A DNA stretch of 64,000 nucleotides. Source: Chitinophagaceae bacterium 26-R-25. Lineage in GTDB: Bacteria > Bacteroidota > Bacteroidia > Chitinophagales > Chitinophagaceae. Below the pieces are notes generated by a model that did not search any database, was not told the origin of the DNA, and saw nothing but the letters and a program-made list of their open reading frames with translations. Of this stretch, positions 2,266 to 61,420 are shown piece after piece; position 1 is the first letter of the stretch; each line of letters starts with the position of its first letter. The position numbers and the translations under genes are program-made. The stretch covers positions 2,976,001-3,040,000 of the forward strand of contig JARWSJ010000001.1 of NCBI GenBank assembly GCA_029906195.1, read 5' to 3'.

Positions 2266-3081
2266 ATGCAAAGTTTTCGATCTGCCTTTTATCAACTAAA
2301 TGAAGAGAAGGTGCATGTTGATCTTCATACAAACGCTCAGCAATTGTTGCAGGAGATAGATGTTGCAAACAACTCTTTTGCAATGGCAACATCATCATTT
2401 TTATTCATACTCGACAAGAATCAATTCGAATATTTTTACGTCGATGGCAATGCAAAAAATGTTTTAGCGGGTAATCATTTTTCAGAAAGCAATCCGATGA
2501 TCGAATTGCATTTGAACACTGATGACGAAAAAGTATTGTTGGAAAAAATATTTCCCACCATCGATTTCCTGTGCAGAAAAAATCATTGCGAAAAAGATAA
2601 ACTTACATTCTCATTTAATTTTCGTGTTTCCTCAAAACTAGGCACAGAGCGCATTTTCATACAAAACATTTCTTTCCTCAATAACTTTAGCAAAGAATCG
2701 CCACTACATTTTGTTGGAACATTTACAGACATCACACATTTCAAAAACGACAACAAGATAATTTTCGTTGCAGAAAAAAATGGTGCAGATAACAATAGCT
2801 GCGAGCTGATCACACGCGATGTTTTTTCTCCAGATCAAAACACAGTGCATCTCACAAAACGTGAAATCGAAGTATTGAAATGCATCAATGATGGACTCAG
2901 CAGTAAACAAATTGCAGACAAGCTTTTTGCAAGCCTCAACACGATCAACAATCACCGCAAAAACATTTTAAAAAAGACCCACACAAAGAATACTTCGGAG
3001 CTCATCAGTTTTGCACTGAAACAGGGTTTGCTGCAGGTGTGGTTGTTAGTTGATAGTTGTTGTCTGCTGGCGAGCTTGTAG
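2266..3081 (+). CDS. LuxR-type HTH transcriptional regulator
   Basis: A 271-residue protein. Residues about 196-258 form a LuxR/GerE helix-turn-helix (LTKREIEVLKCINDGLSSKQ, then NTINNHRKNIL). The N-terminal 190 residues look like a PAS-type sensor fold, but no ligand site can be named. No receiver domain with a phospho-acceptor Asp is evident. The last 14 residues or so (after ALKQGLLQ) are encoded by the left arm of the intergenic inverted repeat at 3041-3265, so the original C-terminus was probably shorter and has been extended by repeat invasion. The ATG at 2266 follows TATATTTA at 2238-2245. Targets are unknown; the ccm genes downstream are 217 bases away. Confidence 0.85.
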   Translation: MQSFRSAFYQLNEEKVHVDLHTNAQQLLQEIDVANNSFAMATSSFLFILDKNQFEYFYVDGNAKNVLAGNHFSESNPMIELHLNTDDEKVLLEKIFPTIDFLCRKNHCEKDKLTFSFNFRVSSKLGTERIFIQNISFLNNFSKESPLHFVGTFTDITHFKNDNKIIFVAEKNGADNNSCELITRDVFSPDQNTVHLTKREIEVLKCINDGLSSKQIADKLFASLNTINNHRKNILKKTHTKNTSELISFALKQGLLQVWLLVDSCCLLASL

Positions 3082-3265
3082 CCGGTGGCCAGCGGCCTGA
3101 AGCCGGTACTTTGTGGCAGCAGCCTTTGCAAAACTTTACCAACGCTATTTTTTTTATTAAGAAACAACTTTACGATCCGTCTCGGTCATCGACCTAAAAC
3201 ACCAGCCACCGGCCGCTGGCTACCGACCACTTCCTCCTAACAACTATCAACCAACAACTAACAAC
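3041..3265. repeat. heptad-word inverted repeat, overlaps LuxR gene end
   Basis: Outer arms at 3041-3062 and 3239-3265 are built of 7-base words such as GTTGTTA GTTGATA and their complements; the right arm has one extra word. Inner arms at 3077-3110 (words GTGGCCA GCGGCCT) and 3201-3228 also run in heptads and are GC-rich. The left outer arm lies inside the reading frame of the LuxR-type gene. Confidence 0.75.
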
Positions 3266-3272
3266 TTCTTCC

Positions 3273-3280
3273 TACCTTCG
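3273..3280 (+). promoter_or_regulatory. candidate -7 promoter box for ccmB
   Basis: TACCTTCG differs from the Bacteroidota -7 consensus TAnnTTTG at one base and lies 18 bases before the ccmB start. No clear TTG at -33 is visible. The same TTCG variant precedes prs. Confidence 0.35.
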
Positions 3281-3298
3281 CCCGCATAATCGCATCCC

Positions 3299-3949
3299 TT
3301 GAGTCACATCCTAACACTTTTCAAGAAAGATTTTTTGCTGGAAATCCGCCAGCAGCATACTTTTTATGGCATTTTGCTGTATGTGGCAGCTACTATTTTC
3401 GTTCTGTACCTTGCAATGGGCCAGCCGGAAAGCGCCGTATGGAATGGCCTTTTCTGGATGATTCAATTGTTTGTCTGTGTAAATGCGGTGGCTAAAAGTT
3501 TTCTTCAGGAAAGCCGCGGAAGAATGTTGTACTTCTACTCCATTACCGGTGCCAGGAACTTCATCATCGCTAAATTGGTTTTCAACGCTCTTTTGATGAT
3601 GGCCATGAGCCTTGTAAGCTGGGCGCTATTCACCATTTTGCTCGGCAACGAGGTAAGATATGGTATGATGTTTTTTGGCCTTACCGTACTGGGCGGCATG
3701 AGCCTGAGCCTGGTTTTCACGTTTTTATCTGCCATAGCTGCACGTGCTCAGCAAAATGCATCTCTGATGGCAATTCTGGGTTTTCCCATCATCATTCCTC
3801 AACTAATGCTCCTGATGAAAGTGGCCAACGCCGCCTTCTCTGACGTTATCCAGGCAGGTATGTTCCAAATGGTGTCGCTGTTAGTGGCCATGGATATCCT
3901 GGTGATTACGCTCGCCATTATCTTGTTTCCGTTTTTGTGGAAGGACTAA
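3299..3949 (+). CDS. ccmB: heme exporter subunit CcmB
   Basis: A 216-residue, six-helix membrane protein. The N-terminus (LFKKDFLLEIRQQHTFYG) and the following helices match CcmB, the permease of the CcmAB ABC transporter of system I cytochrome c maturation, which helps release holo-CcmE from CcmC. The best start is TTG at 3299, since the family N-terminus begins here and no in-frame ATG precedes the first helix. It is followed by ccmC and a ccmD-like gene. The ATPase ccmA and the chaperone ccmE are not in the window. Confidence 0.88.
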   Translation: MSHILTLFKKDFLLEIRQQHTFYGILLYVAATIFVLYLAMGQPESAVWNGLFWMIQLFVCVNAVAKSFLQESRGRMLYFYSITGARNFIIAKLVFNALLMMAMSLVSWALFTILLGNEVRYGMMFFGLTVLGGMSLSLVFTFLSAIAARAQQNASLMAILGFPIIIPQLMLLMKVANAAFSDVIQAGMFQMVSLLVAMDILVITLAIILFPFLWKD

Positions 3950-3952
3950 ATG

Positions 3953-4082
3953 CTGGCCGGTAGCCAGTTACAGGTAGCCAGGGGGTCCGCTATTTTTTTC
4001 CTTATCTCCAAACATCATGGAGCCCTTTATATAAGAATGAATCTTACATAATAAACACCGGCAACCGGCTACTGGCCGCCGG
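3953..4082. repeat. heptad-word inverted repeat between ccmB and ccmC
   Basis: The left arm at 3953-3982 reads in words such as CCGGTAG CCAGTTA. The right arm at 4056-4082 reads ACCGGCA ACCGGCT in complement order. A 17-base core matches between the arms with three transitions (GGCCRGTAGCCRGTTRC). It shares words with the inner arms at 3077-3228. Confidence 0.7.
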
Positions 4083-4232
4083 AATCTCCTGTCCCTCAGC
4101 TTGCATCCAATCCACATCCGCCCCCACCTGACCAAACTCTCTTTTTTCTTATCCCTGTTTACACTAAATTTGCCCACACTTTCAACTTGTGAAAGCGAAT
4201 GCGACTCATAAGTTATTACCAATCTGATATTT

Positions 4233-4913
4233 ATGCACAAGAAATGGTGGAAAATACTCTGTGTCATTCTTCTTACCTACACAGTCATCGGCGGTTTCCT
4301 GTTTAGCGTTCCGGCAAGGGAAATTTTACACGAAACAATTCGCAACCTGTACTTCCATGTGTGCATGTGGTTTGGCATGATGATCCTTTTTACCACTTCA
4401 GTTGTTTATTCTATAAAGTATTTGCGTTCGCAAAATTTACGTGATGATCTGTATGCGGTGAACTTTACCAAAGTAGGTATCGTGTTCGGCATACTTGGCT
4501 ACACAACAGGTGCTTTGTGGGCGAAATATACATGGACAGAATTCGCTTCCGATACAGAAATTTTTCGCGAGCCTAAACTATTAGGTGCCGCAATAGCGTT
4601 ACTTATATACTTTGCGTACCTGGTGTTGAGAGGCTCTTTATCAGACATTGACAAGAGGGCAAGAATAAGTGCCGTGTATGCCATTTTCGCGTATGCAATG
4701 CTTTTTCCGTCTATCTGGATTTTGCCGAGATTACTGGATAGTTTGCATCCGGGAAAAGAAGGCAACCCGGCCTTGAATTTTAAAGACAGCGATGCCCGTT
4801 TAAGAATGGTTTTTTATCCTGCCATCATCGGATGGACGTTGTTAGGCGTTTGGATAACATCATTAAAGATCAGGCTAGATTTAATAAAAGAAAGAAGCAT
4901 TTTAAATGACTAA
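4233..4913 (+). CDS. ccmC: cytochrome c assembly protein CcmC (heme handling)
   Basis: A 226-residue, six-helix membrane protein of the CcmC/CcmF/CcsA heme-handling family. His42 (LYFHVCMWFG) and His172 (DSLHPG) sit where the family has its two axial heme ligands. The Trp-rich periplasmic loop starts canonically (LWAKYTW, W96) but continues TEFASDTEIFREPK, so part of the usual WWD motif is replaced. CcmC loads heme onto CcmE in the periplasm. The gene overlaps the next one by 8 bases (ATG at 4906 inside its end), so the two are translationally coupled. Confidence 0.9.
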   Translation: MHKKWWKILCVILLTYTVIGGFLFSVPAREILHETIRNLYFHVCMWFGMMILFTTSVVYSIKYLRSQNLRDDLYAVNFTKVGIVFGILGYTTGALWAKYTWTEFASDTEIFREPKLLGAAIALLIYFAYLVLRGSLSDIDKRARISAVYAIFAYAMLFPSIWILPRLLDSLHPGKEGNPALNFKDSDARLRMVFYPAIIGWTLLGVWITSLKIRLDLIKERSILND

Positions 4914-5130
4914 AATTCAATTATTGCTGGCAATTGTATTGCTTCAGCTAATCCCCGTTTCCCTTTGGGCACAGGTAACAGAAGCCCAACAAAAATACAC
5001 AGCCTTTGAAATGCGCAGCAATGGAAAAATTTACGTGGTTGTCGCTGTAGTATTGATCATCCTGTTTGGCTTATTGACTTATCTGGTAAGACTAGACAGA
5101 AAGATCACTAAGCTGGAAAAAGAAAAGTAA
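4906..5130 (+). CDS. CcmD-like small membrane protein
   Basis: A 74-residue protein with an N-terminal hydrophobic signal-like segment ending SLWAQ, one central transmembrane helix (IYVVVAVVLIILFGLLTYLV) and a basic tail. Size, topology and position directly after ccmC match the CcmD family of Bacteroidota, which stabilises CcmC with CcmE in the heme-loading step. Sequence similarity between CcmD proteins is weak, so the call rests mainly on context. Confidence 0.75.
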   Translation: MTKIQLLLAIVLLQLIPVSLWAQVTEAQQKYTAFEMRSNGKIYVVVAVVLIILFGLLTYLVRLDRKITKLEKEK

Positions 5131-5201
5131 AAAGTAAAAATTCAAAAGTAAAAATGCATCCTGCGCAGCCTTTTGAATTTTGATTTTTGACTTTTGAATT
5201 T
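5122..5201. repeat. heptad-word inverted repeat after ccmD
   Basis: The left arm at 5122-5155 holds words such as AAAAGTA AAAATTC. The right arm at 5170-5201 is its imperfect complement, and the loop is GC-richer (CATCCTGCGCAGCC). The left arm starts over the ccmD-like stop codon. It is the same family as the arrays at 24851-24962 and 43571-43730. Confidence 0.75.
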
Positions 5202-5337
5202 CCCAACATTTAACGTCTAATTTTTCAAAATACCCTTAGCTTGCACGCCAAAATGAAAGACAAAGAAAACCTGTAATTCATTTTTTCTTATTTAGCCCGG
5301 TAGCAACCAACGATTGTAATACCATAAATTTCAAACT

Positions 5338-6756
5338 ATGTCTACTAAACATGAGTACAGCTTTTTTGGAGCTGTAGAGAAAAGCTTTGACAAAGCCGCC
5401 AAATTCACGACCGTTGATGAAGGTGTGCTTGAACAAATTAAACAATGTAATGCCGTTTACCGTATGCACTTTCCGGTTAAGATCGGAGAAAAAGTGGAAG
5501 TTATAAAAGCATATCGTGTACAACACTCTCACCACAAAACACCTTGTAAAGGTGGTATCCGCTTCGCTACTTCTGTAAATCTTGATGAAGTAATGGCCCT
5601 TGCCGCGCTGATGACATTTAAATGTGCCATCGTAAACGTACCATTTGGCGGAGCTAAAGGCGGTATCAACATCGACCCTAAAAAATATACCCCTTACGAA
5701 CTGGAAAAAATTACGCGCCGCTACACTGCGGAGCTGATCAAGAAAAACTTTATTGGACCAGGTACAGACGTTCCTGCCCCTGATTATGGTACAGGTGAGC
5801 GCGAAATGTCATGGATCCTCGATACATATACAAGCATGCGCCCCGGCGAGATTGACGCATTGGGTTGTGTTACCGGCAAACCGGTTTCCCAGGGCGGTGT
5901 CCGCGGTCGACGCGAAGCAACAGGTCTTGGTGTATTTTACGGCCTGCGCGAAGTATGTAATATGCCAGAAATGATGCAGCGTGTTGGTATGGAAGTAGGC
6001 ATTAAAAACAAGCGCGTTATCGTACAAGGTTTAGGAAACGTGGGTTACCACGCCGCTAAATTCTTCCGCGAAGGTGGTGCTAAAGTAATTGCTTTGGCAG
6101 AATACGAAGGTGCTATTACAAACCCTGATGGTTTAAACGAAGAAGAAGTTTTCCAACACAGAAAGAAAACTGGTTCCATCTTAAATTTCCCTGGCGCAAC
6201 AAATGTTGAAAATTCAAATCTTGCATTGGAACTGGATTGTGATATCCTGATCCCCGCGGCTTTGGAAAACGTTATCAACGGCGAAAATGCACCAAGAGTA
6301 AAAGCAAGAATCATAGGCGAGGCGGCGAACGGCCCTCTTACTCCAGAGGCAGACGAAGTGTTTGCAAAAAGAGGAGTACTGGTTGTTCCTGATATGTACC
6401 TGAATGCTGGTGGTGTGACCGTTTCATACTTCGAATGGTTGAAAAACCTTAGCCACGTACGCTACGGTCGCCTTGAAAAAAGATTCACAGAAAACATGAA
6501 TGCCCGCATTCTTGAGCAAATGGAAGACCTTACCGGCAAAAAAGTAGTTGACCAGGAAAGACAATTCATTATGCACGGTGCAGATGAAGTTGACCTGGTT
6601 TACAGCGGCCTTGAAGAAACAATGATCACTGCAACACGTGAAATTGTTGACTGCTGGCACGCCAATCCATCGATTCCCGACATGCGTACAGCTGCATATG
6701 TAGTAGCCATCAATAAAGTTGCTACAAGCTATGCAGAGCTGGGCATTTTCCCATAG
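5338..6756 (+). CDS. gdhA: glutamate dehydrogenase (Glu/Leu/Phe/Val family)
   Basis: A 472-residue protein. It interconverts glutamate and 2-oxoglutarate plus ammonia with NAD(P). The substrate-site lysines lie in CKGGIRF (about K71) and GGAKGG (about K107); [14 protein letters not shown] gives the catalytic region. The nucleotide-binding fold starts at [15 protein letters not shown]. Length and motifs fit the hexameric enzyme of about 420-470 residues; coenzyme preference cannot be read safely. The gene stands alone, with a word-array inverted repeat on each side acting as probable transcript boundaries. Confidence 0.93.
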
Positions 6757-6765
6757 CAGAAACCG

Positions 6766-6845
6766 GAACGCAGATCATCATGATCGTCATTATTTCTATG
6801 ATTTTTTAATCTTGATAATCATGACAACCATGAAAATCTGCGTTC
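6766..6845. repeat. inverted repeat of the GAACGCAGAT family, between convergent genes
   Basis: The arms at 6766-6790 and 6821-6845 match at 21 of 25 positions. They start and end with GAACGCAGAT and its complement and contain CATGATnGTCAT words. It fills the gap between gdhA and the convergent gene at 6852-7286 and probably acts as a bidirectional terminator. Relatives lie at 17326, 18515 and 61382, with a fragment at 7305. Confidence 0.75.
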
Positions 6846-6851
6846 TTTTTC

Positions 6852-7304: not shown

Positions 7305-7402
7305 GGAACGCAGATTTTCGTTAATTGAAAATTGAAAGTTGAAAATTGAAAATGATTTCACTTGCTTTATCACTTTCAATTTTCAACTTTCAATTTTCAA
7401 CT
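7305..7402. repeat. heptad-word inverted repeat in a divergent promoter region
   Basis: The arms at 7322-7353 and 7371-7402 are made of GTTGAAA ATTGAAA words and match with about three mismatches over 32 bases. A fragment of the GAACGCAGAT family precedes it at 7305-7320. Unlike most others it sits between divergent genes, so it cannot serve as a simple 3' terminator for either one. Confidence 0.8.
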
Positions 7403-8240: not shown

Positions 8241-8300
8241 GGGCGAATGATTCGCCCCTACCATTTTCAACTTTCAACTTTCAACTTTCCATTTTCAATT
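8241..8300. repeat. composite repeat: GGGCGAA hairpin plus heptad array
   Basis: A 7-bp hairpin GGGCGAA-TGA-TTCGCCC at 8241-8257 is followed by CCTAC and an array of CAACTTT words to 8300. The reverse complement of the whole composite, with the array before GTAGGGGCGAAT, recurs at 22369-22429, so hairpin and array appear to travel as one unit. Confidence 0.7.
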
Positions 8301-11048: not shown

Positions 11049-11176
11049 GTGGAGAGTTGAGAATTGAAAGTTGAGAGTTATAGATTCTTGTGCTTTGGTA
11101 TTGTTAGTCGCTGGTGGCGAGTGGTTAAAGTCTCGCTCACTCTCAACTCCCCACTCTCAATTCTCAATTCTCAATT
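11049..11176. repeat. heptad-word inverted repeat
   Basis: The left arm at 11049-11080 (GAGTTGA GAATTGA words) and right arm at 11139-11176 (ACTCTCA ATTCTCA words) are complementary in word order with several mismatches. It is related to the GTTGAAA family at 7322 and 22369. Confidence 0.7.
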
Positions 11177-12549: not shown

Positions 12550-12560
12550 TTGGAATCAAA

Positions 12561-12659
12561 ATTTGATACTTGATATCTGAAATCTGACAAATTCTAGCCG
12601 TAAGACTAATGGAAGGGGCTTACAGTTAATAACTTCAAATCTCAAACTTCAAATCTCAG
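12561..12659. repeat. heptad-word arrays, weakly inverted
   Basis: Words such as ACTTGAT ATCTGAA at 12561-12589 face ACTTCAA ATCTCAA words at 12632-12659. Period seven is clear in each, but complementarity between the arms is weaker than elsewhere. It lies between rplY and pth. Confidence 0.6.
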
Positions 12660-12676
12660 ATATTATATTTCTAATG

Positions 12677-15475: not shown

Positions 15476-15613
15476 CAATTAATAATTAATAATGAATAAT
15501 TAATAGACGTAGCAGTATAAGGCAAATTATGCTTTCCTCTGTTCAAAAATTAGCAGGGCCGCATTCAATGAAGAATGCGGCCCTATTAATTATTCATTAT
15601 TAATTGTTAATTA
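15476..15613. repeat. heptad-word inverted repeat around a GC hairpin
   Basis: AATTAAT AATGAAT words at 15476-15505 pair with 15584-15613; 22 bases match perfectly. The right arm reaches into the stop codon of the convergent gene at 15611. Confidence 0.85.
15555..15584. terminator. bidirectional terminator hairpin between convergent genes
   Basis: A perfect 12-bp stem (AGGGCCGCATTC with its complement) around the loop AATGAA lies in the middle of the spacer between radC and the gene at 15611, nested in the word arrays. Confidence 0.75.
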
Positions 15614-16037: not shown

Positions 16038-16070
16038 GAGTTGAAAGTTGAGAATGGAGAATGGAGAGTT
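16038..16070. repeat. single heptad-word array
   Basis: A run of GAGTTGA AAGTTGA and GAATGGA GAATGGA words in exact period seven. No facing partner is seen nearby. It lies in the spacer shared by the divergent genes at 15611 and 16181. Confidence 0.65.
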
Positions 16071-17325: not shown

Positions 17326-17452
17326 GGAACGCAGATTGTCATGATCGTCAAGATCTGTTAAGATTTTATTTGGAAATTTGAGATTGCAAAATTCCAATCA
17401 AGCCTAAATTTCAGATCATAAAAATCATGACAATCATGAAAATCTGCGTCCT
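17326..17452. repeat. inverted repeat of the GAACGCAGAT family
   Basis: The arms at 17326-17358 and 17412-17452 share GGAACGCAGAT and TCATGATnGTCA words. An inner hairpin TTGGAA...TTCCAA lies at 17370-17398. It separates the MFS gene from the LLM gene, which are in the same direction. Confidence 0.75.
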
Positions 17453-17505: not shown

Positions 17506-18525
17506 ATGGCAAAGAAGAATATTAAACTTAGTGTACTGGATCAATCGATTGTAAGAAAGGGTTTTACTGCAAGAGATGCCGTAATGGAAACCATTGCCAC
17601 GGCTAAGTTTACTGAGAATTTAGGCTATCATAGATTTTGGGTCTCCGAACATCACAACTCAGATATTATTGCAGGCTCGGCTCCGGAGCTTTTGCTTGTT
17701 AAACTGGGTGATGAAACGAATACGATCCGACTTGGCTCCGGTGGAATTATGCTGCCTAATCATAGTTCCCTGAAAGTGGCAGAAAACTTTCGCATGCTGG
17801 AAACACTTTTCCCCGGACGCATTGATCTGGGCATGGGTCGTGCGCCTGGCGGAGATCGCATTACCGCAACGCTCCTAAATCCATCAAATGATTTTAGCGA
17901 AGAGCGTTACTTAACACAACTGGAACATCTGCAAGCATTCTTTACTGATACAGCTGGCACGCAATATGGCCCGATACTGGCTGTGCCACAATCTCCCAGT
18001 ATTCCGGCGCAGTGGATACTTAGCTCAAGTGGCGGCAGCAGCAGCATTGCGGCGAAATTTGGAATGGGATTGGCAGTGGCGAAATTCATTAACGGTCACG
18101 CTACTCCTGATGTTGTTGCAACCTACCGCAAGCAATTTCAGCCTTCTGCTCAAATGGAACAACCACATGCATTTCTTGCCATCAGTGTGTTGTGTGCACC
18201 AACCAAAGAGAAAGCAAACCAGCTTCGCAAACAGGCTCACTATTTTTTCATTCAATTTGAAAAAGGCAAGTTTATGCCGCCTCCTTCCTACGAGGAAATA
18301 AAGGACTATGAGTTTTCTGATGATGAGCTCGCAATTATCGAGAGGAACAAGGGACGTATTGTTGTAGGCACGCAGCAGGAAGTGAAGGAGCAACTAACGC
18401 AACTGGCAGAAGACTTTGATGTGGATGAAATAATGATCACTTCCATGACACATAGCAGGGATGATAGATTCAAGTCTTTTGAATTATTGGCTGAAGCCTT
18501 TGAGCTGGCAACGATGGAACGCTGA
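17506..18525 (+). CDS. LLM-class flavin-dependent oxidoreductase
   Basis: A 339-residue luciferase-like monooxygenase. It begins IKLSVLDQS, has RFWVSEHHN near residue 45 and the flavin-region motifs IRLGSGGIMLPNHSSLKVAE and GRIDLGMGRAPGGD. These place it in the bacterial luciferase-like group with FMN supplied by a reductase; the substrate is unknown. GTG at 17500 is in frame, but ATG 17506 is the likelier start. The last three codons and stop lie in the left arm of the repeat at 18515-18627. Confidence 0.9.
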   Translation: MAKKNIKLSVLDQSIVRKGFTARDAVMETIATAKFTENLGYHRFWVSEHHNSDIIAGSAPELLLVKLGDETNTIRLGSGGIMLPNHSSLKVAENFRMLETLFPGRIDLGMGRAPGGDRITATLLNPSNDFSEERYLTQLEHLQAFFTDTAGTQYGPILAVPQSPSIPAQWILSSSGGSSSIAAKFGMGLAVAKFINGHATPDVVATYRKQFQPSAQMEQPHAFLAISVLCAPTKEKANQLRKQAHYFFIQFEKGKFMPPPSYEEIKDYEFSDDELAIIERNKGRIVVGTQQEVKEQLTQLAEDFDVDEIMITSMTHSRDDRFKSFELLAEAFELATMER

Positions 18526-18627
18526 TTTTCATGATTGTCATGATCAGGATGATTTTTTATTTGAGATTTTGCGCACCATTAAATCTGGAATCATGAAAAT
18601 CATGAAAATCTTGAGAATCTGTGTTCT
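18515..18627. repeat. inverted repeat with nonamer words, between convergent genes
   Basis: The arms at 18515-18552 and 18589-18627 run in nine-base words such as GATTTTCAT GATTGTCAT and AATCATGAA. It belongs to the GAACGCAGAT family and covers the stop codon of the LLM gene. Confidence 0.75.
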
Positions 18628-19710: not shown

Positions 19711-19748
19711 AATTTGAAAATTTGAGGATTTGAAAATTTGAAAATTCC
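19711..19748. repeat. octad-word array
   Basis: ATTTGAAA ATTTGAGG words in period eight with no facing partner in the spacer. Confidence 0.6.
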
Positions 19749-19782
19749 AGTTGTTAGTCACAAATAGATACGCCGCCTTTTT

Positions 19783-19871
19783 AATCGCAAAGAACGCGAA
19801 GTGAGCGCAAACGTAGCAAAGAGAAAATCATCTTAGCTATCTTTGCGCACCCTTTGAGCGCTTTGCGGTTA
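19783..19871. repeat. inverted repeat of CGCAAAG words
   Basis: AATCGCAAAG-type words at 19783-19821 face CTTTGCG-type words at 19841-19871. The word length is about 10-11, unlike the heptad families. The rest of the spacer to 20159 is AT-rich and must hold the AraC-gene promoter; no further gene is seen. Confidence 0.65.
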
Positions 19872-20159
19872 AAGTTTTAGTCGAAATGTGCAAGAATTAC
19901 CATATTGCTGTACTATTTTAACATTAACCCAAAACATTCAAATTCCGTTTTTTGATGCAATACAGCAGTTTCAAAAAAAGCGAAAATCACTAAAACATAT
20001 TCATTATCAAAATCTTACAATCTTTCAGAAACCATTCTTTTTCATTAATTTATTAAAGGTCAGGTTGACAATCAATCGACATGCAATGATAAAATTCCAT
20101 ACTTTTATTTTAAATAGTTTAATCGTTGTAATATTTTAGCATCAATTAACGATTGTGAT

Positions 20160-22368: not shown

Positions 22369-22494
22369 GGAGAGTTGAAAATTGAAAGTTGAAAATTGAA
22401 AATGCCGTAGGGGCGAATCGCATTCGCCCAATGGTTAAGCGTTAGGCATTCAGCATAGCATTAGGCGTTAGGCATTGAGCCTTGCGCCTTTTTT
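22369..22494. repeat. composite repeat region with terminator after GH29
   Basis: A GTTGAAA ATTGAAA array (22369-22403) runs into the hairpin GGGCGAAT-CGC-ATTCGCCC at 22411-22429. A heptad array follows (GCGTTAG GCATTCA words, 22438-22490) whose end folds as GGCG...CGCC with a T-run at 22463-22494, a likely terminator. Array plus hairpin is the reverse complement of 8241-8300. Confidence 0.75.
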
Positions 22495-22532: not shown

Positions 22533-23303
22533 ATGAAGATTGCAACTTATAATGTGAATGGTGTGAATGGCCGGCTGCCGGTTTTATTGCGGTGGCTGGA
22601 GGAGTCGAAGCCTGATGTTGCTTGCTTGCAGGAATTGAAAGCACCTGAGGAAAAATTTCCTGAGCAGGCAATTAAAGATGCGGGATATAACTGCATCTGG
22701 CACGGACAAAAAAGTTGGAACGGCGTTGCTATCCTTTCGCGCAAACACGCGATTGAAGAGGTTTGCAGAGCGCTCCCCGGCGATCCGGAGGACTTGCACA
22801 GCCGCTACATTGAGGCGAAGATTAATGGTATAACGATCGGTTGTTTGTACTTGCCCAATGGCAATCCCGCACCGGGCCCAAAGCTCGATTATAAGTTAGC
22901 CTGGTTCAAAAGATTAACGGCGCATGCAAAAGATCTTTTGTCGCGTGGCGAGCCAACGATTCTAACTGGCGATTACAATGTGATGCCAACAGAACTTGAC
23001 GTTTACAAACCGGAGAAGTGGGTGGATGACGCATTGTTCCGTCCGGAGGTGCGTGAGGCGTTTCACACACTGGTGGCGCAGGGCTGGACGGATGCGTTGC
23101 GCAAACTGCATCCCGGCGAAAAGATCTATACGTTCTGGGATTATTTCCGCAATGCATTTGGCAGAGATGCAGGTCTGCGCATTGATCACTTTTTATTAAG
23201 CGCTCATTTCGATAAAAAATTAAAATCTGCCGGGGTTGATAAATATGTGAGGGGTTGGGAAAAATCGAGTGACCATGCTCCGGTTTGGATTGAGATTAAC
23301 TGA
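22533..23303 (+). CDS. xth: exodeoxyribonuclease III
   Basis: A 256-residue AP endonuclease/3'-5' exonuclease of the exonuclease III family, acting in base-excision repair. It starts MKIATYNVNGVNGRL, with the metal Glu in CLQELKAP (about E34), GDYNVMP for the catalytic Asp/Asn pair, LRIDHFLLS and the terminal SSDHAPVW with the catalytic Asp-His. The length equals the family norm. The stop codon is the second to fourth base of a perfect 39-bp hairpin. Confidence 0.94.
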   Translation: MKIATYNVNGVNGRLPVLLRWLEESKPDVACLQELKAPEEKFPEQAIKDAGYNCIWHGQKSWNGVAILSRKHAIEEVCRALPGDPEDLHSRYIEAKINGITIGCLYLPNGNPAPGPKLDYKLAWFKRLTAHAKDLLSRGEPTILTGDYNVMPTELDVYKPEKWVDDALFRPEVREAFHTLVAQGWTDALRKLHPGEKIYTFWDYFRNAFGRDAGLRIDHFLLSAHFDKKLKSAGVDKYVRGWEKSSDHAPVWIEIN

Positions 23304-23382
23304 AGTGCTCAACGCTGAACGCCTAACGCTAAACGCAGGGACTCTGCGTTTAGCGTTAGGCGTTCAGCGTTGAGCACTTCAG
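23300..23382. terminator. perfect 39-bp hairpin between convergent genes, heptad words
   Basis: 23300-23338 and 23344-23382 are exact reverse complements around the 5-base loop GGACT. Each arm reads in words AACGCTG AACGCCT and AACGCTA. The stem covers the xth stop codon and ends 8 bases before the GH30 stop, so it fills the whole gap and probably stops transcription from both sides. Confidence 0.9.
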
Positions 23383-24850: not shown

Positions 24851-24962
24851 AAAAAGTCAAAAGTAAAAAGTAAAAATTCAAAAAGCTTTAATGCTGTCTT
24901 GCCTGGGTTTCTGCAGAGACCTCGCAACGCGGTTTCCTATTTTTTACTTTTTACTTTTTACT
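24851..24962. repeat. heptad-word inverted repeat between SusD and GH30 genes
   Basis: AAAAGTC AAAAGTA words at 24851-24885 face TTTTTAC words at 24939-24962. It lies inside the PUL, between co-directional susD and the GH30 gene, so it could lower expression of the downstream enzyme. Confidence 0.7.
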
Positions 24963-24967
24963 TCCCG

Positions 24968-29990: not shown

Positions 29991-30059
29991 AGTAATAAGT
30001 TCTGAGTATTAAGTTTTGTGTTATGAGTAAAACATCGCCACATAACACTTGTACAATTA
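29991..30059. repeat. heptad-word inverted repeat between fecR and susC
   Basis: AGTAATA AGTTCTG words (29991-30032) face CATAACA CTTGTAC words (30040-30059), which run up to the FecR stop codon. The remaining 203 bases to the SusC start must contain its sigma-dependent promoter. Confidence 0.6.
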
Positions 30060-31245: not shown

Positions 31246-31402
31246 GGAATTAAGAATTAAGAATTAGGAATTAAGAATTCCTTTTGTGGATCATTGTTTA
31301 TTTTGTTTGACAAGTTGAACTTTTACCAATAAAGATGTGTCGGCATTTTAGTGAATGCAACACCTAAAGCATTCTTAATTCTTAATTCCTAATTCTTAAT
31401 TA
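31246..31402. repeat. heptad-word inverted repeat between sigma and fecR genes
   Basis: AATTAAG AATTAGG words at 31246-31280 pair with 31371-31402 over about 30 bases with few mismatches. It separates the co-directional sigma factor and fecR genes, which may uncouple their expression. Confidence 0.8.
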
Positions 31403-32011: not shown

Positions 32012-32095
32012 AAGCAGCAAACGCCCTTTAGATAGATAAATTTATGAAAGAATATGCTGCATTGAAATTCAAATTTATGAGAGGTAGCACTAATG

Positions 32096-32207
32096 GACTG
32101 AATAACTGAATGACTGAATAACTGAGTCGTTGCACTTTGAACAGCATGATTCCCCTGAAACCTCAATAATTCAATGATTCAGTTATTCAGTTACTCAGTT
32201 ATTCAGC
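32096..32207. repeat. octad-word inverted repeat in a divergent promoter region
   Basis: ACTGAATA ACTGAATG words at 32096-32126 pair with 32170-32207. It lies between the divergent sigma gene and the gene at 32328, so it is not a simple terminator. Nothing else was found in the 316-base spacer. Confidence 0.8.
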
Positions 32208-32327
32208 TAATTTCGACCAGATCCGTGTAAATCAGTCCAATCAGTGTCATCAGGTGCTAAAAGTCCCCGAAACGTGAACAATATTCGACCAAAATTGTTC
32301 AATTTTTATGCACAAACCTTAAAACTT

Positions 32328-43257: not shown

Positions 43258-43570
43258 TAGCTAAAAAATTTGAGTCAAACAAAAATGCATGCGCGCCGAA
43301 CGCCGCCGCGTGTCTTGATAACCCAAAACACACGACACCAGCCGTTTGTTCTATTCACATTCAATTTTTCACAAAATTCTTTAGTAAGTACCGCGTATTA
43401 AGTCACGGCATAGGATCTCAGAAGAAGGCTTAACTACCGGCGAGTGAAGTTTTTACATGCCCCGGACTTGCAATTAAATTATGAAGTTGTTCTGCTTTCG
43501 GAGGCAAAACAGATGGAAAGGGATGATGGCGCAGAAGAGAATTTATTTTCGACTATACTTATACGTTATA
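43258..43570. other. intergenic region, no confident gene
   Basis: About 310 bases with no supported gene. A GTG-started plus-strand frame from 43444 runs into the repeat and is not accepted. The promoter of the minus-strand barrel genes must lie here. Confidence 0.35.
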
Positions 43571-43730
43571 CAATTCAAAAGTCAAAAGTAAAAATTCAAA
43601 AATGTCCGATTGTCGAAGTTCGTTTTTCTTGTACAACAAGGGAGATGTTTAAGATTTTTTTGACTTTTGACTTTTGACTTTTGACTTTTGACTTTTGACT
43701 TTTGACTTTTGACTTTTGACTTTTGACTTT
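43571..43730. repeat. heptamer tandem array (TGACTTT)10 with facing arm
   Basis: 43661-43730 is exactly ten copies of TGACTTT. The left arm 43571-43603 has AAAAGTC AAAAGTA words complementary to it. The array ends one base before the stop codon of the minus-strand gene at 43732. Confidence 0.95.
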
Positions 43731-57297: not shown

Positions 57298-57662
57298 CGT
57301 TAGTTTTGTTTTAATCGAAGAATGGAAGCAAAATAGACGATAATGGAGGGAAGCCCCATGTCTGATTGCGAAAAAAAACCGTCATTTTGCGAAACCTTAG
57401 AGAATCTTCTCCCGTCGGGCAAACCGCTATTAAGTGTAGTAAAAACGACCGTCTCGCCTTATAAAAACCGTTTGTGTGCTTGATACAGCACTGCATAACA
57501 TGCAAAATACGAACTAGAAAAAATCAGATATCAATTAGCTAATTTGAAGGACCAGTTGCTAATTTCGCTTGACAAGTGAAAATGTAGGTGAAGATTTTTT
57601 GATGCCTGTAAATTTATTTCAGGACGAGGAAAAGAGACTTGAAAATAACGCTGGGTAAAATA
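57298..57662. other. intergenic region upstream of susC
   Basis: About 365 bases without a gene, containing the promoter of the second PUL. No clear -7 box, operator or word array is seen. Confidence 0.35.
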
Positions 57663-57914: not shown

Positions 57915-58787
57915 ATGAAACAAATAGCGCCTTCTGAACTGATAATCAACAGCCGTGGAGCAGTCTATCATCTGGATGTTCGTCCCGAAGAACTGGCAAC
58001 TACTATCATTACCGTCGGCGACCCTGATCGCGTGGCGTTGCTAAGCAGGCATTTTGATAACATTGAATACAAGCGCCAGCACCGTGAATTTATTACCCAC
58101 ACCGGTACCATCAATAACAAAAGGCTGTCTGTTGTTTCTACGGGAATCGGTCCTGACAATATCGATATTGTGATTAACGAGCTGGATGCATTGGTAAACA
58201 TCGACTTTGAAACCCGCACTATTAAAGAAGAGCTTACGGCTTTGCAGATAATGCGCCTCGGCACCTGCGGTTCGCTACAGAAAGATATTCCGGTGGATAA
58301 TTTCGTGGCCTCCACGCACGGTCTTGGTCTGGACAATCTGCTTAACTTTTACCGCCACGAGCATAACGATGAAGAAAAATTGCTGTTGCAATCTTTCATG
58401 ACCCAAACCCAACTGAATAATTCTTCGCAACCCTATATAAGCGGCGCTTCGGCTTCGCTGTTAAAGAATTTTGTTGATGGTTTCCACCAGGGAATTACCG
58501 TAACCTGCCCTGGATTTTATGGCCCCCAGGGCCGCGTTTTGCGCCTTGGCCTCAGCAATCCTCAACTGGTGGACCGGCTTACAGACTTCAGTTTTGGACA
58601 ACACCGGATCTCCAATTTTGAAATGGAAACTTCTGCCATTTACGGGCTTGGCAGGCTGCTGGGTCACCATTGCCTTAGCCTGAACGCTGTGGTAGCAAAC
58701 CGGGTCGTGAAAGAATTTTCTAAAGACAGCGCTTTGGCAGTGAACAAACTGATTGAAAAGGTGCTTGGCATTGTGAGCACAATTTAG
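57915..58787 (+). CDS. nucleoside phosphorylase (uridine phosphorylase-like)
   Basis: A 290-residue protein with the PNP/UDP phosphorylase fold: VGDPDRVALLSRHF near residue 33 for phosphate, STGIGPDNIDIVINEL, RLGTCGSLQ and ISNFEMETSAIYGLG for ribose binding. It would cleave nucleosides with phosphate for salvage. The exact base preference is not certain. The word array at 58786 starts over its stop codon. Confidence 0.88.
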   Translation: MKQIAPSELIINSRGAVYHLDVRPEELATTIITVGDPDRVALLSRHFDNIEYKRQHREFITHTGTINNKRLSVVSTGIGPDNIDIVINELDALVNIDFETRTIKEELTALQIMRLGTCGSLQKDIPVDNFVASTHGLGLDNLLNFYRHEHNDEEKLLLQSFMTQTQLNNSSQPYISGASASLLKNFVDGFHQGITVTCPGFYGPQGRVLRLGLSNPQLVDRLTDFSFGQHRISNFEMETSAIYGLGRLLGHHCLSLNAVVANRVVKEFSKDSALAVNKLIEKVLGIVSTI

Positions 58788-58892
58788 CTAAACGCCAAAG
58801 GCCTAACGCTTAACGCCCTTGAGGTGCCACAATCTATTTAGCCGGTTACGCCCTAAACGCGTTAGGCGTTGGGCACTAAGCTTTAAGCGTTT
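58786..58892. repeat. heptad-word inverted repeat
   Basis: CCTAACG CTTAACG words (58786-58818) face GCGTTAG GCGTTGG words (58850-58892). It is the same word family as the perfect hairpin at 23300 and the array at 22438. Confidence 0.7.
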
Positions 58893-58908
58893 GTAAAGCA
58901 ACAAATCT

Positions 58909-58916
58909 TACCTTTG
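58909..58916 (+). promoter_or_regulatory. candidate dapF -7 promoter box
   Basis: TACCTTTG matches TAnnTTTG exactly, 40 bases before the dapF ATG. The nearest TTG upstream is 15 bases away, closer than the usual spacing. Confidence 0.5.
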
Positions 58917-58956
58917 ATAATTGCCCGAATCAATCAAAAAGGACAAAAGGAGATAT

Positions 58957-59745
58957 ATGAAACTTAATTTTTTTAAGTACCAGGGAACAGGAAATGACTT
59001 TGTGATTCTTGATAACCGTAACCATGAATACGATGCCTTAACCAATGAGCAAGTGAAATTTTTGTGTGATCGTCGTTTTGGAGTTGGTGCAGATGGCTTG
59101 ATGCTGTTGAACAGTGCTGGTGATTACGATTTCGAAATGAAATACTACAACTCAGACGGCAACACAAGTACAATGTGCGGAAATGGTGGACGCTGCCTGG
59201 TGAAGTTTGCTTTTCACCGCGGTATTACAAGGACAATTTATCGCTTTATTGCAGCAGACGGATTGCATGAAGCTGAAATTGACATGGATGGCACTGTAAG
59301 TCTGAAAATGAAAGACGTTTCTACAATTGAAGAACTCAATCATAAAGATTTTTTACTGGATACAGGTTCCCCACACTATGTGAAAATGGTCAGCGATGTA
59401 ATGGATTATGATGTGTACCAAAAAGGGCACGACATACGCTATAGCAACAAATTTGCAAAACAAGGCGTGAACGTAAATTTCGTAGAGCAAAAGAATGATG
59501 ATGAGATCATTGTTCGCACTTACGAACGCGGTGTTGAAGATGAAACACTAAGTTGTGGCACCGGCGTTACAGCAAGCGCTTTGGTTAATTTTCATAATGA
59601 AATTGGTTTTAACGAAGTAATCGTTACAACAAAAGGTGGCAAACTGTCCGTAGAATATGATCGCCACAAAGAGGGGTCGTATTCTGATATCTGGCTGTGC
59701 GGCCCTGCTGACATGGTTTTTGCCGGATGCATTGAGATTAATTAG
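58957..59745 (+). CDS. dapF: diaminopimelate epimerase
   Basis: A 262-residue enzyme converting LL- to meso-diaminopimelate for peptidoglycan and lysine. YQGTGNDFVILDN begins the chain; the two catalytic Cys are in TMCGNGGRCL (about C76) and ETLSCGTG (about C206). ATG 58957 is preceded by AAAGGAG, a good ribosome site; the upstream TTG at 58921 is not needed. The stop codon lies inside the word array at 59739. Confidence 0.96.
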   Translation: MKLNFFKYQGTGNDFVILDNRNHEYDALTNEQVKFLCDRRFGVGADGLMLLNSAGDYDFEMKYYNSDGNTSTMCGNGGRCLVKFAFHRGITRTIYRFIAADGLHEAEIDMDGTVSLKMKDVSTIEELNHKDFLLDTGSPHYVKMVSDVMDYDVYQKGHDIRYSNKFAKQGVNVNFVEQKNDDEIIVRTYERGVEDETLSCGTGVTASALVNFHNEIGFNEVIVTTKGGKLSVEYDRHKEGSYSDIWLCGPADMVFAGCIEIN

Positions 59746-59879
59746 GAATTAGAAATTAGGAGTTAGGAATTAGTGGTGTTTGATAATCATTCGATAACCT
59801 GCACCGCTAACACTTAACTCTAATTTTTTACTTCCTTGCATATTGGTTCTAATTCCTAATTTCTAATTCCTAATTCCTA
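59739..59879. repeat. heptad-word inverted repeat between dapF and corA
   Basis: AATTAGG AATTAGA words (59739-59773) pair with TAATTCC TAATTTC words (59847-59879). The left arm covers the dapF stop codon and the right arm ends 7 bases before the corA start. Confidence 0.85.
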
Positions 59880-59886
59880 TTTTTTT

Positions 59887-60825
59887 GTGATTCAAATTTT
59901 CAAAAACATTAACCACCAAACGGTTGCTATTGACAAGGCTGAAAACGGTGCATGGATCAATGTATTGCCGCCTTTGAAACAGGAAGAGTTTAACGACCTT
60001 TCTGAGCAACTGGATGTACCCTTAGACTTTTTAACTGACTCACTGGATATTGATGAACGCTCGCGCTATGAAGAAGAAGACAATGTGAAGCTGATCGTTA
60101 TCAAAACGCCTACCGAGAACAACTCTTTCAACGAGAGCGACGCGTTTTACATTACCATTCCTATTTGTATTATCCTAACGCATAATCAAATTATCACCGT
60201 AAACTCTTTCGAGAATGCTGCGATAAAGAAATTCCTTAGCACATTTCAAAACCGCCATCCAGACAACAGGAAAATGATGGTGTTGAAGATCTTCGAAAAG
60301 ATCGTGCAGAACTACATGGCGTATTTGAAAGAGATCAATCAGCGCAGAAACATACTGGAGCAAAAACTGTATGACTCTAACCGTAACGAGGAGCTGCTGG
60401 AATTAATGCGTATTCAAAAGAGCCTCGTATATTTTGTAACGGCACTTCGATCAAATGAGTTGTTACTACTAAAGCTTGAAAGAACAAACTTCCTGGGTCT
60501 GAATGATGAAGAAAAAGAATTTTTGAAGGACCTTATAGTTGACGTTTCGCAAGCGCTTGAAATGTCGAACACTTACACCAACATCTTAAGCAGTACGCTG
60601 GATGCATTTGCAAGCATCATCAGCAACAACCTTAACAATGTGATGAAGCGCCTGACATCTATCACCATCATTTTATCACTACCAGCTTTAGTGGCGGGCA
60701 TTTACGGAATGAACGTGCCGATACCATACCAAACTTATCCGCACGCATTTTACATTCCGCTGATCCTGTCGGTAGTTGCATCAATAATTTTGAGTTGGTA
60801 CTTCTTGAAGAAGAAATGGTTCTAG
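59887..60825 (+). CDS. corA: CorA-family magnesium transporter
   Basis: A 312-residue protein with a GTG start at 59887. It has a cytoplasmic alpha/beta domain, a long helical stalk and two C-terminal membrane helices; the signature YGMNVP follows the first helix (GMN at about 274-276). It forms pentameric channels for Mg2+ or related divalent ions. The C-terminal basic tail (KKKWF) matches the family. Confidence 0.93.
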   Translation: MIQIFKNINHQTVAIDKAENGAWINVLPPLKQEEFNDLSEQLDVPLDFLTDSLDIDERSRYEEEDNVKLIVIKTPTENNSFNESDAFYITIPICIILTHNQIITVNSFENAAIKKFLSTFQNRHPDNRKMMVLKIFEKIVQNYMAYLKEINQRRNILEQKLYDSNRNEELLELMRIQKSLVYFVTALRSNELLLLKLERTNFLGLNDEEKEFLKDLIVDVSQALEMSNTYTNILSSTLDAFASIISNNLNNVMKRLTSITIILSLPALVAGIYGMNVPIPYQTYPHAFYIPLILSVVASIILSWYFLKKKWF

Positions 60826-60830
60826 AAGCA

Positions 60831-60924
60831 ATAACTGAATAACCGAATAACTGAATAACCGAAAGGTTCAAGTAGTTGTAGCATGCAACACAGAAACTAA
60901 TTCCTAATTTCTAATTCCTAATTC
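60831..60924. repeat. two unpaired word arrays of different families
   Basis: An octad array AACTGAAT AACCGAAT at 60831-60862 and a heptad array TAATTCC TAATTTC at 60897-60924 share one short spacer but do not pair. The second runs to the base before the Nudix start region. Confidence 0.7.
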
Positions 60925-60925
60925 A

Positions 60926-61381
60926 ATGATCACTCTTCGCGTATACGGCATTTTAAAAGACGAATCCGGAAGAATTTTAGTAAGCGATGAGTTCATCCGC
61001 GGAGCTTATTACACTAAGTTTCCCGGCGGTGGGCTTGAGTTTGGCGAAGGCACACGCGATTGCCTGAAACGGGAGTTCAAGGAAGAAATGAATCTTGAAG
61101 TGGAGGTGCTTGAACATTTATACACCACTGATTTTTTCCAGATGAGTGCCTTTCGCGAAGGCGATCAAATTGTTTCCATTTATTATTGGGTGAAAGCACT
61201 GGAACCAATCAAAGCTCCACTTCGTGAAACACCTTTTGATTTTGATGAAAGAGAATTAAAGATGTACGAAGCAACAGGTGAAACAGAAACCTTCCGTTTT
61301 ATTGATAGTAAAGATTTTTCTGCAGAATGTGTGTCATTGCCGATTGACAAGGTTGTAGCGGATATGATAAGAGGGAAATAA
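60926..61381 (+). CDS. Nudix hydrolase
   Basis: A 151-residue protein. The Nudix box GGGLEFGEGTRDCLKREFKE and EEMN (about 34-56) is complete, with the metal-binding REFKEE. It hydrolyses a nucleoside diphosphate linked to another moiety; the substrate is unknown. Its start codon lies right after a word array, with no clear ribosome site. Confidence 0.9.
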   Translation: MITLRVYGILKDESGRILVSDEFIRGAYYTKFPGGGLEFGEGTRDCLKREFKEEMNLEVEVLEHLYTTDFFQMSAFREGDQIVSIYYWVKALEPIKAPLRETPFDFDERELKMYEATGETETFRFIDSKDFSAECVSLPIDKVVADMIRGK

Positions 61382-61420
61382 GAACGCAGATCTTCATGAT
61401 TGTCATGATGAGTTATGATC
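61382..61420. repeat. single arm of the GAACGCAGAT family
   Basis: GAACGCAGATCTTCATGATT with TGTCATGATG follows the Nudix stop directly; no facing arm is found nearby. Confidence 0.65.

What the first reader, a model, noticed from the sequence alone, without database searches (positions are those of the whole stretch)
3041..61420. A genome-scale class of heptad-periodic intergenic hairpins with unrelated sequences but one design
About 24 spacers hold arrays of degenerate words repeated mostly every 7 bases (some 8 or 9), usually as two facing arms. At least ten word families are seen, for example GTTGAAA, AATTAGG, AATTAAT, AAAAGTC, AACGCCT, GTTGATA, CCGGTAG and ACTTCAA. The words differ in sequence and GC content, yet period and layout recur. 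Variant words keep the same order in both arms (clear at 7322/7371), so the arms were copied or converted together. This points to a common generating or maintaining process that reads register, not sequence. Heptanucleotide STRR repeats of cyanobacteria are a known parallel, but I know of no description of facing inverted pairs like these.
Basis: partly seen in the sequence, partly recalled or inferred. Interest (0 to 1): 0.85.

Follow-up and report, generated by a model that had tools for sequence, protein, structure and literature searches.

The report
Four-unit repeat hairpins between genes
About half of the sampled gaps between genes in this soil bacterium hold small hairpin elements whose two arms are each built of about four repeats of a 7-9 letter word; many different words share this build, and one word can replace another at the same place in a sister species.

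Summary
In the window 24 of 36 spacers carry such arms. Lag-7 signal has z = 12.8, and 415 bases lie in strongly 7-periodic stretches against 0 in 100 shuffles. The host is most likely a Pinibacter (Chitinophagaceae). In 1.66 Mb of its genome, 1,070 arms of 17 consensus families lie in 478 of 935 spacers. Unit number has a local peak at four in 6 of 7 families tested. Arms face inward and start a median 3 bp from stop codons. Loop length is family-specific but loop sequence mostly private. Between three Pinibacter species a spacer usually stays occupied while its family may change, mostly on both arms at once. Facing arrays with other words occur in 12 of 78 related loci. Most arms are no more like their own partner than like arms elsewhere, so 'reads register, not sequence' is only partly right. 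Paired opposite-strand tandem octamers were described in Geobacter metallireducens in 2009 (PMC2700814; passages), so the layout is not new. Best reading: dispersed REPIN/MITE-like elements that replace and nest in one another. The mover is unproven; a transposase beside one family is the only lead.

The parts
3041..3068 (+). T6 outer left arm (GTTGTTAG words)
3080..3106 (+). T10 inner left arm (CCGGTAG-like words)
3209..3235 (-). T10 inner right arm (0.74)
3239..3266 (-). T6 outer right arm
5130..5157 (+). T4 left arm (AAAAGTC words)
5168..5195 (-). T4 right arm
6765..6803 (+). T8 left arm (9-base TCATGATT words, GGAACGCAGAT end); G001 has T9 here, G002 a T9-like arm
6808..6846 (-). T8 right arm
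7324..7351 (+). T1 left arm, four GTTGAAA-type units
7374..7401 (-). T1 right arm
8272..8299 (-). single T1 arm
11049..11076 (+). T1 left arm
11148..11175 (-). T1 right arm
12558..12586 (-). T17 array, orientation atypical
12634..12661 (-). T17 array
15477..15504 (+). T3t left arm (AATTAAT words); the orthologous spacer in G002 is 5 bp
15555..15584 (.). inner hairpin of the T3t element; the stem covaries among T3t copies
15585..15612 (-). T3t right arm
16040..16067 (+). single T1 arm
17326..17364 (+). T8 left arm
17414..17452 (-). T8 right arm
18516..18554 (+). T8 left arm (0.74)
18589..18620 (-). facing 9-periodic array
19712..19743 (+). T2 arm (8-base ATTTGAAA words)
19781..19812 (+). T14 arm (GCAAAG words)
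19841..19872 (-). T14 right arm
22374..22401 (+). T1 arm
22430..22483 (-). two overlapping T7 arrays (AACGCCT words)
23300..23338 (+). T7 left arm of a 39-bp perfect inverted repeat
23344..23382 (-). T7 right arm
24852..24879 (+). T4 left arm
24938..24965 (-). T4 right arm
29999..30026 (+). single T15 arm (GTTTTGA words)
31248..31275 (+). T3g left arm (AATTAAG/AATTAGG words)
31374..31401 (-). T3g right arm
32093..32124 (+). T5 left arm (8-base AACTGAAT words)
32180..32211 (-). T5 right arm
32220..32258 (-). T9 arm
43570..43597 (+). T4 left arm
43655..43730 (-). T4 right array, including ten perfect TTTTGAC units at 43658-43730
57518..57546 (+). weak T17 match (0.72), doubtful
58791..58818 (+). 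T7 left arm
58857..58884 (-). T7 right arm
59740..59767 (+). T3g left arm; T3t in G002
59848..59875 (-). T3g right arm
60830..60861 (+). T5 arm of a hybrid element
60896..60923 (-). T3g arm of the same hybrid
61381..61419 (+). single T8 arm

Best explanation
These are families of short dispersed palindromic elements (median outer length 116-152 bp by gene context), built like REPINs, BIMEs or MITEs. Each has two facing arms of about four 7-9 bp units around a loop of family-typical length. Shown: copies are dispersed; they crowd gene 3' ends, are found nested in one another, and change family at the same orthologous slot, mostly on both arms together. Inferred: they spread as whole elements moved in trans by an enzyme not yet identified, arriving mainly in or beside existing elements. 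Loops then drift, while arms stay recognisable because movers, hairpin-templated repair or 3'-end function keep them. Unit-step changes and arm-to-arm copying (clear for T3g and T7) add a second layer.
For: Conserved sequence ends near the arms: 11-20 bp inside them information is 0.04-0.13 bit in T1, T3g, T4, T5 and 0.22-0.49 in T2, T3t, T6, T8 (T7 not measurable). Unit numbers: T1 13/13/120/17 arrays with 2/3/4/5 units. Family-specific loop length: T3t quartiles 78-82, T2 84-90, T5 38-56. Faint loop homology inside families: T3t 17 of 66 and T2 23 of 105 loop pairs exceed the highest shuffled pair. Family change: of 60 comparisons with both outer arms in both genomes, 32 same, 19 both arms switched, 9 one arm switched; 56 further comparisons were incomplete. 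Occupancy kept: G001 35 both, 5 one-only, 26 neither; G002 60, 16, 27. Outer T1 arms kept with unrelated content: L023:1911, L023:3259, L025:14797. Lineage restriction: T1 by the hundred in 3 of 3 Pinibacter genomes, 2 and 4 hits in two other genera, 0 in 34 genomes. An intact REP-associated tyrosine transposase (NF047646, 106.8 bits, cut-off 80), 94-95% identical in both sister genomes, has a T8 arm or pair 79-104 bp downstream in all three.
Against: No target-site duplication seen; only three filled/empty pairs, one of them a collapsed remnant, and none more in 50 further orthologous spacers. Most loops have no recognisable copy: 35 of 245 do in 1.66 Mb, and of four switched or G000-specific loops searched genome-wide three matched nothing else and one only its own hairpin. 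The RAYT link concerns T8 only and is one orthologous arrangement; G001 and G002 each have a second, 39-40% identical RAYT; in 21 other genomes no periodic array lay beside the RAYT. Differences in occupancy are rarer than family switches, which a freely moving element does not predict. 15 of the 28 switches are only between the close families T3g and T3t. Arms are less conserved than the rest of the same spacers (p 0.045 and 0.001).
Confidence: 0.5

Rival explanations
1. Host-functional 3'-end hairpins: RNA stems of any sequence act as bidirectional terminators or mRNA end protectors, so selection keeps a hairpin in the slot whatever its words.
For: Arms begin a median 3 bp from stop codons (n 452, quartiles -2 and 9) and 38 bp from starts (n 363). 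Spacers with arms: convergent 108/180, ++ 187/324, -- 117/257, divergent 66/174. Canonical terminators are rarer at 3' ends with an element, 73/479 vs 82/330, p 0.0008. Occupancy kept while family switches, mostly on both arms. Inner hairpin of T3t covaries: score 0.326 vs 0.120, 0 of 500 shuffles.
Against: 38% of divergent spacers also carry arms; no marked T tract outside the arms. 31 of 235 two-arm +- spacers are hybrids whose arms differ in family. Control 5' ends show a similar terminator depletion (11/381 vs 28/390, p 0.008). Retention is not higher at convergent than at divergent spacers. Covariation can also come from template switching.
Confidence: 0.25
2. Local mutation: polymerase slippage by seven or eight bases makes arrays and template switching at quasi-palindromes copies one arm into the other; no transposition.
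For: Unit number differs between orthologs (2956680: left arms 5, 4, 2 units, counted on the alignment). T3g and T7 arms match their own partner best. A 39-bp perfect inverted repeat at 23300-23382. Near-perfect arms in L043. Template switching homogenises inverted-repeat arms (start of abstract of PMC8604942, in the listing). PMC4679880 reports a proposal of Mrazek et al. 2007 that 7 nt may be the length that interacts with the polymerase and favours slippage (passage).
Against: Same family consensus at hundreds of unlinked places; a local peak at four units in 6 of 7 families instead of a steady fall; swaps such as T8 to T2 or T7 to T5 on both arms.
Confidence: 0.13
3. Paired binding sites for a nucleoid or global regulator protein, as proposed for the Geobacter sites (IHF/HU).
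For: Same paired layout, with family-typical spacing; authors' proposal in PMC2700814 (passage).
Against: Many different words would need as many readers or a sequence-blind one. Gene functions beside the arms were not examined.
Confidence: 0.07
4. Stop-codon cassettes: a word period not divisible by three closes all three reading frames leaving a gene.
For: In Pinibacter 57% of arms close all three frames on the gene-to-spacer strand vs 21% on the other.
Against: Not so in the related loci: 1.28 frames vs 1.64 (25 arrays). T3g, T4, T7, T11, T12 and T14 show no such bias; T8, T9 and T11 have period 9.
Confidence: 0.03

Closest known systems
Geobacter metallireducens paired 'global regulator binding sites' (PMC2700814, classes 1-3) and its four-heptamer elements
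   Same: Sites of four tandem octamers (class 1), three repeats (class 2) or five heptamers (class 3), in pairs on opposite strands, distance variable in classes 1 and 2; multicopy; classes 1-3 said to be unique to that genome; function unproven (passages and supplement legends; alignments themselves not seen)
   Different: There 24, 21 and 8 pairs; here about half of the sampled spacers, at stop codons, with family exchange at orthologous slots
REPIN / BIME (REP doublets, RAYT)
   Same: Two inverted short repeats, intergenic, hundreds of copies, lineage-specific families; an intact RAYT present in the genus
   Different: Arms are tandem 7-9-mers, not one short palindrome; many families but one intact RAYT found in G000; loops not shared between most copies
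MITEs
   Same: Short, non-coding, inverted ends, interspersed
   Different: No target-site duplication seen at three sites, core mostly not shared; a parent transposon was not searched for beyond the RAYT
TAACTGA repeats of Beggiatoaceae; STRR heptamers of cyanobacteria (the latter recalled)
   Same: Intergenic tandem heptamers
   Different: One word, direct repeats mostly upstream of start codons, one inverted case in that genome (PMC4679880, passages)
Intrinsic (Rho-independent) terminators (features recalled)
   Same: Hairpin just after stop codons
   Different: Arms 27-39 bp and AT-rich in the main families, family median loops 15-107 nt, no T tract, frequent in divergent spacers

Membership tests
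REPIN | two inverted copies of a short REP | tested here: inconclusive
   Inverted order met (318 of 332 spacers with both arm directions); arms are 27-39 bp tandem-word arrays, not REPs
REPIN | cognate RAYT with the repeat beside its gene | tested here: inconclusive
   T8 arm or pair 79-104 bp downstream of the orthologous RAYT in 3 of 3 Pinibacter genomes; no link found for other families
REPIN | dispersal observed as a transposition intermediate | not testable with these tools
   needs population sequencing
MITE | target-site duplication | tested here: inconclusive
   none seen at three filled/empty pairs; too few, one a remnant
MITE | core shared between copies | tested here: not met
   37 of 245 loops resemble another loop; 7 pairs cover 60% or more of the shorter; only faint homology in same-length stacks
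Geobacter-type paired tandem-repeat sites | 3-5 tandem 7-8-mers per site | tested here: met
   local peak at four units in 6 of 7 families, T4 without one; T8, T9 and T11 use 9-mers and were not counted
Geobacter-type paired tandem-repeat sites | paired on opposite strands, variable distance | tested here: met
   distance nearly fixed in T3t and T2
STRR / slippage microsatellite | variable copy number of a perfect unit | tested here: not met
   degenerate units, local peak at four in 6 of 7 families; perfect arrays such as 43658-43730 are exceptions
Intrinsic terminator | G+C-rich stem followed by a U tract | tested here: not met
   T is 0.34 of bases outside arms, no tract; some loops hold terminator-like hairpins

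The most novel reading that the evidence does not exclude
A slot-and-cassette system: genes in these bacteria keep 'hairpin slots' after their stop codons, and a dedicated machine rewrites both arms of a slot at once with about four units of one of many word templates, leaving a fresh loop of set length. Sequence would be exchanged while period, unit number, spacing and place are conserved.
Probability: 0.15. Interest if true: 0.88.

Novelty: new variant of a known kind. Interest (0 to 1): 0.62.

Why it matters
If about half of the spacers of a genome hold interchangeable hairpin elements, then much intergenic DNA of these bacteria is repeat-derived, and promoter, terminator and sRNA searches must take account of it. 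The four-unit peak, the family-specific loop length and the paired family switches at kept slots are concrete features that a mechanism must explain. The sister species have isolate genomes (P. soli MAH-24, P. aurantiacus MAH-26), so movement and termination should be testable. The likeness to unexplained paired sites in Geobacter suggests one wider, under-recognised class.

Tried and rejected
Rejected or weakened: (1) chance or AT-rich noise: shuffles give 0 periodic bases at lag 7 and 1-3 arm hits. (2) Stop codons in all frames as the universal design rule: true of several Pinibacter families, not of 25 arrays in the related loci. (3) General arm-to-arm conversion: only T3g and T7 clear. (4) A purine-left/pyrimidine-right rule: 74 of 91 neighbouring pairs fit, but T6 and T8 words break it. 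(5) Hypermutable loops: orthologous loops are 0.795 and 0.767 identical over aligned sites vs 0.717 and 0.616 at fourfold sites, so not faster by substitution. (6) Retention by gene context as a test of termination: no clear difference. (7) Rfam at gathering scores: only a tRNA and c4-2 RNA in the window. (8) Profile search with nhmmer found nothing for the AT-rich families; replaced by an ungapped consensus scan. (9) The reversed-sequence control (181 hits vs 364) was unsuitable, because several words read alike backwards; replaced by shuffles. (10) The first alignment of T3t elements had four rows in the wrong orientation; redone. (11) sought a second syntenic block and found no ortholog. 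(12) searched a stem-loop survey paper for five terms and found none. (13) The scan called a nested T8 at L024:17971 G000-specific, but the alignment shows a shortened T8 in G002 too, so I do not count it.

Literature: nine paper searches were made; all but bear on whether such a class was described, and they cover open-licence PMC papers only. Papers were seen as listings, abstract starts or passages; none was read whole.

Full report
WHAT WAS CHECKED. The window is G000:C1:2976001-3040000 of a 6.51-Mb genome. Its protein 5338-6756 (a glutamate dehydrogenase by my recognition, not by a call) is 99% identical to those of Pinibacter soli and P. aurantiacus. The genus assignment rests on this and on the label 'same genus' of G001 and G002, whose contigs give the same match positions. 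Spacers were taken between ORFs of 90 codons or more from a simple caller of mine, so gene ends are approximate; 30 of 364 arms in the first sample fell outside called spacers.

PERIODICITY. In the 36 window spacers (8,881 bases) lag-7 identity is 0.325 vs 0.272 in dinucleotide shuffles (z 12.8), with harmonics at 14 and 21; lags 8 and 6 rise less (z 4.5 and 3.6). Bases in strongly periodic windows: 415 at lag 7, 90 at lag 8 (shuffle maxima 0), 46 at lag 9 (shuffle maximum 25). In 464 kb of the genome intergenic arrays are 155 at lag 7, 39 at lag 8, 7 at lag 9 and 1 at lags 5, 6, 10, 11, 12 together; 31 more lie in called ORFs, 20 of them at lag 7, and were not examined.

FAMILIES AND ARCHITECTURE. 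I wrote consensus arms for 17 families (T1-T17 without T16, T3 split into T3g and T3t). In 1.664 Mb (25.5% of the genome) there are 1,070 arms, and 478 of 935 spacers carry them. The first 464 kb lie around the window and at places listed as T1-bearing, so they may be enriched: 364 arms there, 706 in the other 1.2 Mb. By proportion this would be about 4,200 arms in the genome (extrapolation). Counts per family run from 7 (T14) to 186 (T1). Of 332 spacers with arms of both directions, 318 have all + arms before all - arms and 14 do not; of 235 two-arm +- spacers 204 pair the same family and 31 are hybrids; single + arms lie in the left half in 57 of 69, single - arms in the right half in 42 of 51. 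Arrays counted without the four-unit consensus show a local peak at four units in 6 of 7 families (2/3/4/5 units: T1 13/13/120/17, T2 29/4/28/2, T3 191/41/100/78, T5 21/18/43/10, T6 21/17/30/5, T7 12/14/24/7); T4 has none (138/39/39/35). The unit patterns of T3 and T4 are loose, so their short arrays will include chance matches. Conservation mostly stops close to the arms: 11-20 bp inside, information is 0.04-0.13 bit in T1, T3g, T4 and T5 and 0.22-0.49 in T2, T3t, T6 and T8, the last four from small samples.

POSITION. The outer edge of the outermost arm lies a median 3 bp from the stop codon (n 452, quartiles -2 and 9) but 38 bp from a start codon (n 363, quartiles 12 and 88). In 78 convergent spacers the median gaps are 3 and 4 bp around a 139-bp element. 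Median spacer length with and without an element: convergent 161.5 and 131.5, ++ 180 and 152, -- 185.5 and 164, divergent 285.5 and 203.5. Occupancy is 60% convergent, 58% ++, 46% --, 38% divergent.

LOOPS. Loop length is family-specific (Kruskal p 2e-25): T3t quartiles 78-82, T2 84-90, T5 38-56, T7 10-26. Loop sequence is mostly private: 37 of 245 resemble another loop and 7 pairs cover 60% or more of the shorter. Stacking same-length elements shows faint homology (T3t mean identity 0.416 vs 0.350 shuffled; T2 0.429 vs 0.355), so common descent with strong drift is likely. Twelve of 18 T3t pairs, chosen by loop length 74-86, were aligned: an inner hairpin covaries (17 two-sided changes vs 5.8 shuffled; score 0.326 vs 0.120; slid versions 0.03-0.13). 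By a perfect stem of 8 or more only 5 of 17 T3t loops keep it, and 0-8 loops of each other family have such a stem.

ORTHOLOGOUS SPACERS. A 244-kb block of G000 was compared with 140 kb of G001 and 240 kb of G002. Fourfold-site identity is 0.717 and 0.616; spacers without elements 0.895 and 0.831; outside the element in spacers with one 0.825 and 0.780; arms 0.743 and 0.669; loops 0.559 and 0.572, counting gaps. Arms exceed loops (Wilcoxon p 2e-6 and 0.011) but fall below the rest of their spacers (p 0.045 and 0.001); repeats align easily, which may flatter arms. Occupancy by any arm is kept: G001 35 both, 3 and 2 one-only, 26 neither; G002 60, 14 and 2, 27. Where both outer arms are seen in both genomes (60 comparisons; the two genomes counted apart for one site), the family is the same in 32, switched on both arms in 19 and on one in 9; 56 comparisons were incomplete and 53 had no arms. 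Of the 28 switches 15 are only between T3g and T3t; the other 13, at 10 sites, include T8 to T2 at 2868151, T7 to T5 at 2878926, T11 to T12 at 2887770 and T8 to T9 at 2982757 (window 6757-6851). 'T10 to T6' at 2881269 is not a clean swap: G000 keeps a degenerate T6 outside its T10. T8 and T9 share the outer GG(A/C)ACGCAGAT, so that switch may be divergence of related families. At 2982757 the stop codon of the upstream gene is in the same place in G000 and G001. In a further 50 orthologous spacers: 18 none, 15 same, 3 both switched, 1 one switched, 11 partial, 2 one-only.

CONTENT EXCHANGE. In L023:1911, L023:3259 and L025:14797 the outer T1 arms are alike in G000 and G002 while the interior is unrelated, with a T8 hairpin on one side only; L024:17971 looked similar in the scan but G002 has a shortened T8 there. 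Copying of whole elements from elsewhere in the present genome was looked for in four switched or G000-specific loops: three had no other match in the 6.5-Mb genome and one matched only its own reverse complement.

BEYOND THE GENUS. Of 39 genomes searched, T1 is abundant in the three Pinibacter genomes, has 2 and 4 hits in two others and none in 34. T8 has 285 hits in G000 and one in 197 other Bacteroidota genomes. A T11-like pattern has hits in 14 of 198 genomes. Word-agnostic scanning of 78 loci around the same gene in other genomes (1.39 Mb; titles Chitinophagaceae, Puia, Niastella and others, or only Bacteroidota) gives 43 intergenic arrays at lag 7, 11 at lag 8, 2 at lag 9, against 0-5 at each other lag; 34, 10 and 8 more lie in called ORFs and were not examined. 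25 of those 56 arrays, in 12 loci, have a facing partner; the shuffled control has none. In 17 single stretches of other genomes (335 kb, 7 of them same family) only 6 intergenic arrays at lag 7-8 were seen, one of them in the same family, two a facing pair in L229. So the architecture is patchy, not universal, outside Pinibacter.

A POSSIBLE MOVER. G000 holds one intact Y1 transposase and a broken one; the intact one is a REP-associated tyrosine transposase by NCBIfam, 94-95% identical in G001 and G002, which each have a second, 39-40% identical one. A T8 pair (G000) or one T8 arm (G002, G001) lies 79, 104 and 103 bp downstream. This is one orthologous arrangement; since T8 is about 7% of arms, chance is not excluded. 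Relatives of this protein occur in 40 of 59 genomes searched. At 21 loci from other genomes no periodic array lay near the gene; 9 of 21 had another inverted repeat nearby, and two had one weak word match each.

PRIOR DESCRIPTION. Passages of PMC2700814 describe in Geobacter metallireducens 24 pairs of sites with four tandem octanucleotides, 21 paired sites with three repeats, and eight pairs with mostly five heptanucleotides, on opposite strands, read as possible IHF/HU sites; also 49 elements of four heptanucleotides. Passages of PMC4679880 describe direct TAACTGA repeats. REPIN facts come from passages of PMC3116915. No paper on these elements in Chitinophagaceae appeared, which cover open-licence PMC only.

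VERDICT. The class is not a blind register copier but a set of dispersed sequence families with a shared build. What is unusual is the four-unit build across different words, the filling of about half of the spacers, the closeness to stop codons and the paired family switch at kept slots. How the switch happens is not shown.

Noticed in passing
L131:1228-1791 (-), within G000:C1:2605217-2605777: Intact REP-associated tyrosine transposase with a T8 hairpin just downstream; orthologs in both sister species also have a T8 arm there.
   Followed up: partly
window 43658-43730: Ten perfect TTTTGAC units on one arm only, the longest array in the tandem-repeat list of the window; its partner arm has about four degenerate units.
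   Followed up: no
T1 loops, for example window 22402-22430 and L013 near 19297: A recurring GTAGGGGCGAAT...ATTCGCCC palindrome follows T1 arms directly in at least 6 of the 48 T1 rows shown.
   Followed up: no
G002 ortholog of L023:17971: The orthologous spacer holds a run of N between arms, perhaps because such hairpins are hard to assemble.
   Followed up: no
window 63548-63621 (-): c4-2 RNA (RF02944) above the gathering score.
   Followed up: no
L043: A locus titled Bacteroidetes bacterium SZAS-41 has four facing array pairs and one more array with a partner, with other words; some arms match 0.96-1.0, which looks like recent birth.
   Followed up: partly
loops of T1 elements L187:7206, L023:12149, L017:11635: Some T1 loops contain hairpins that look like classical intrinsic terminators (long stem with A and T tracts).
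   Followed up: no
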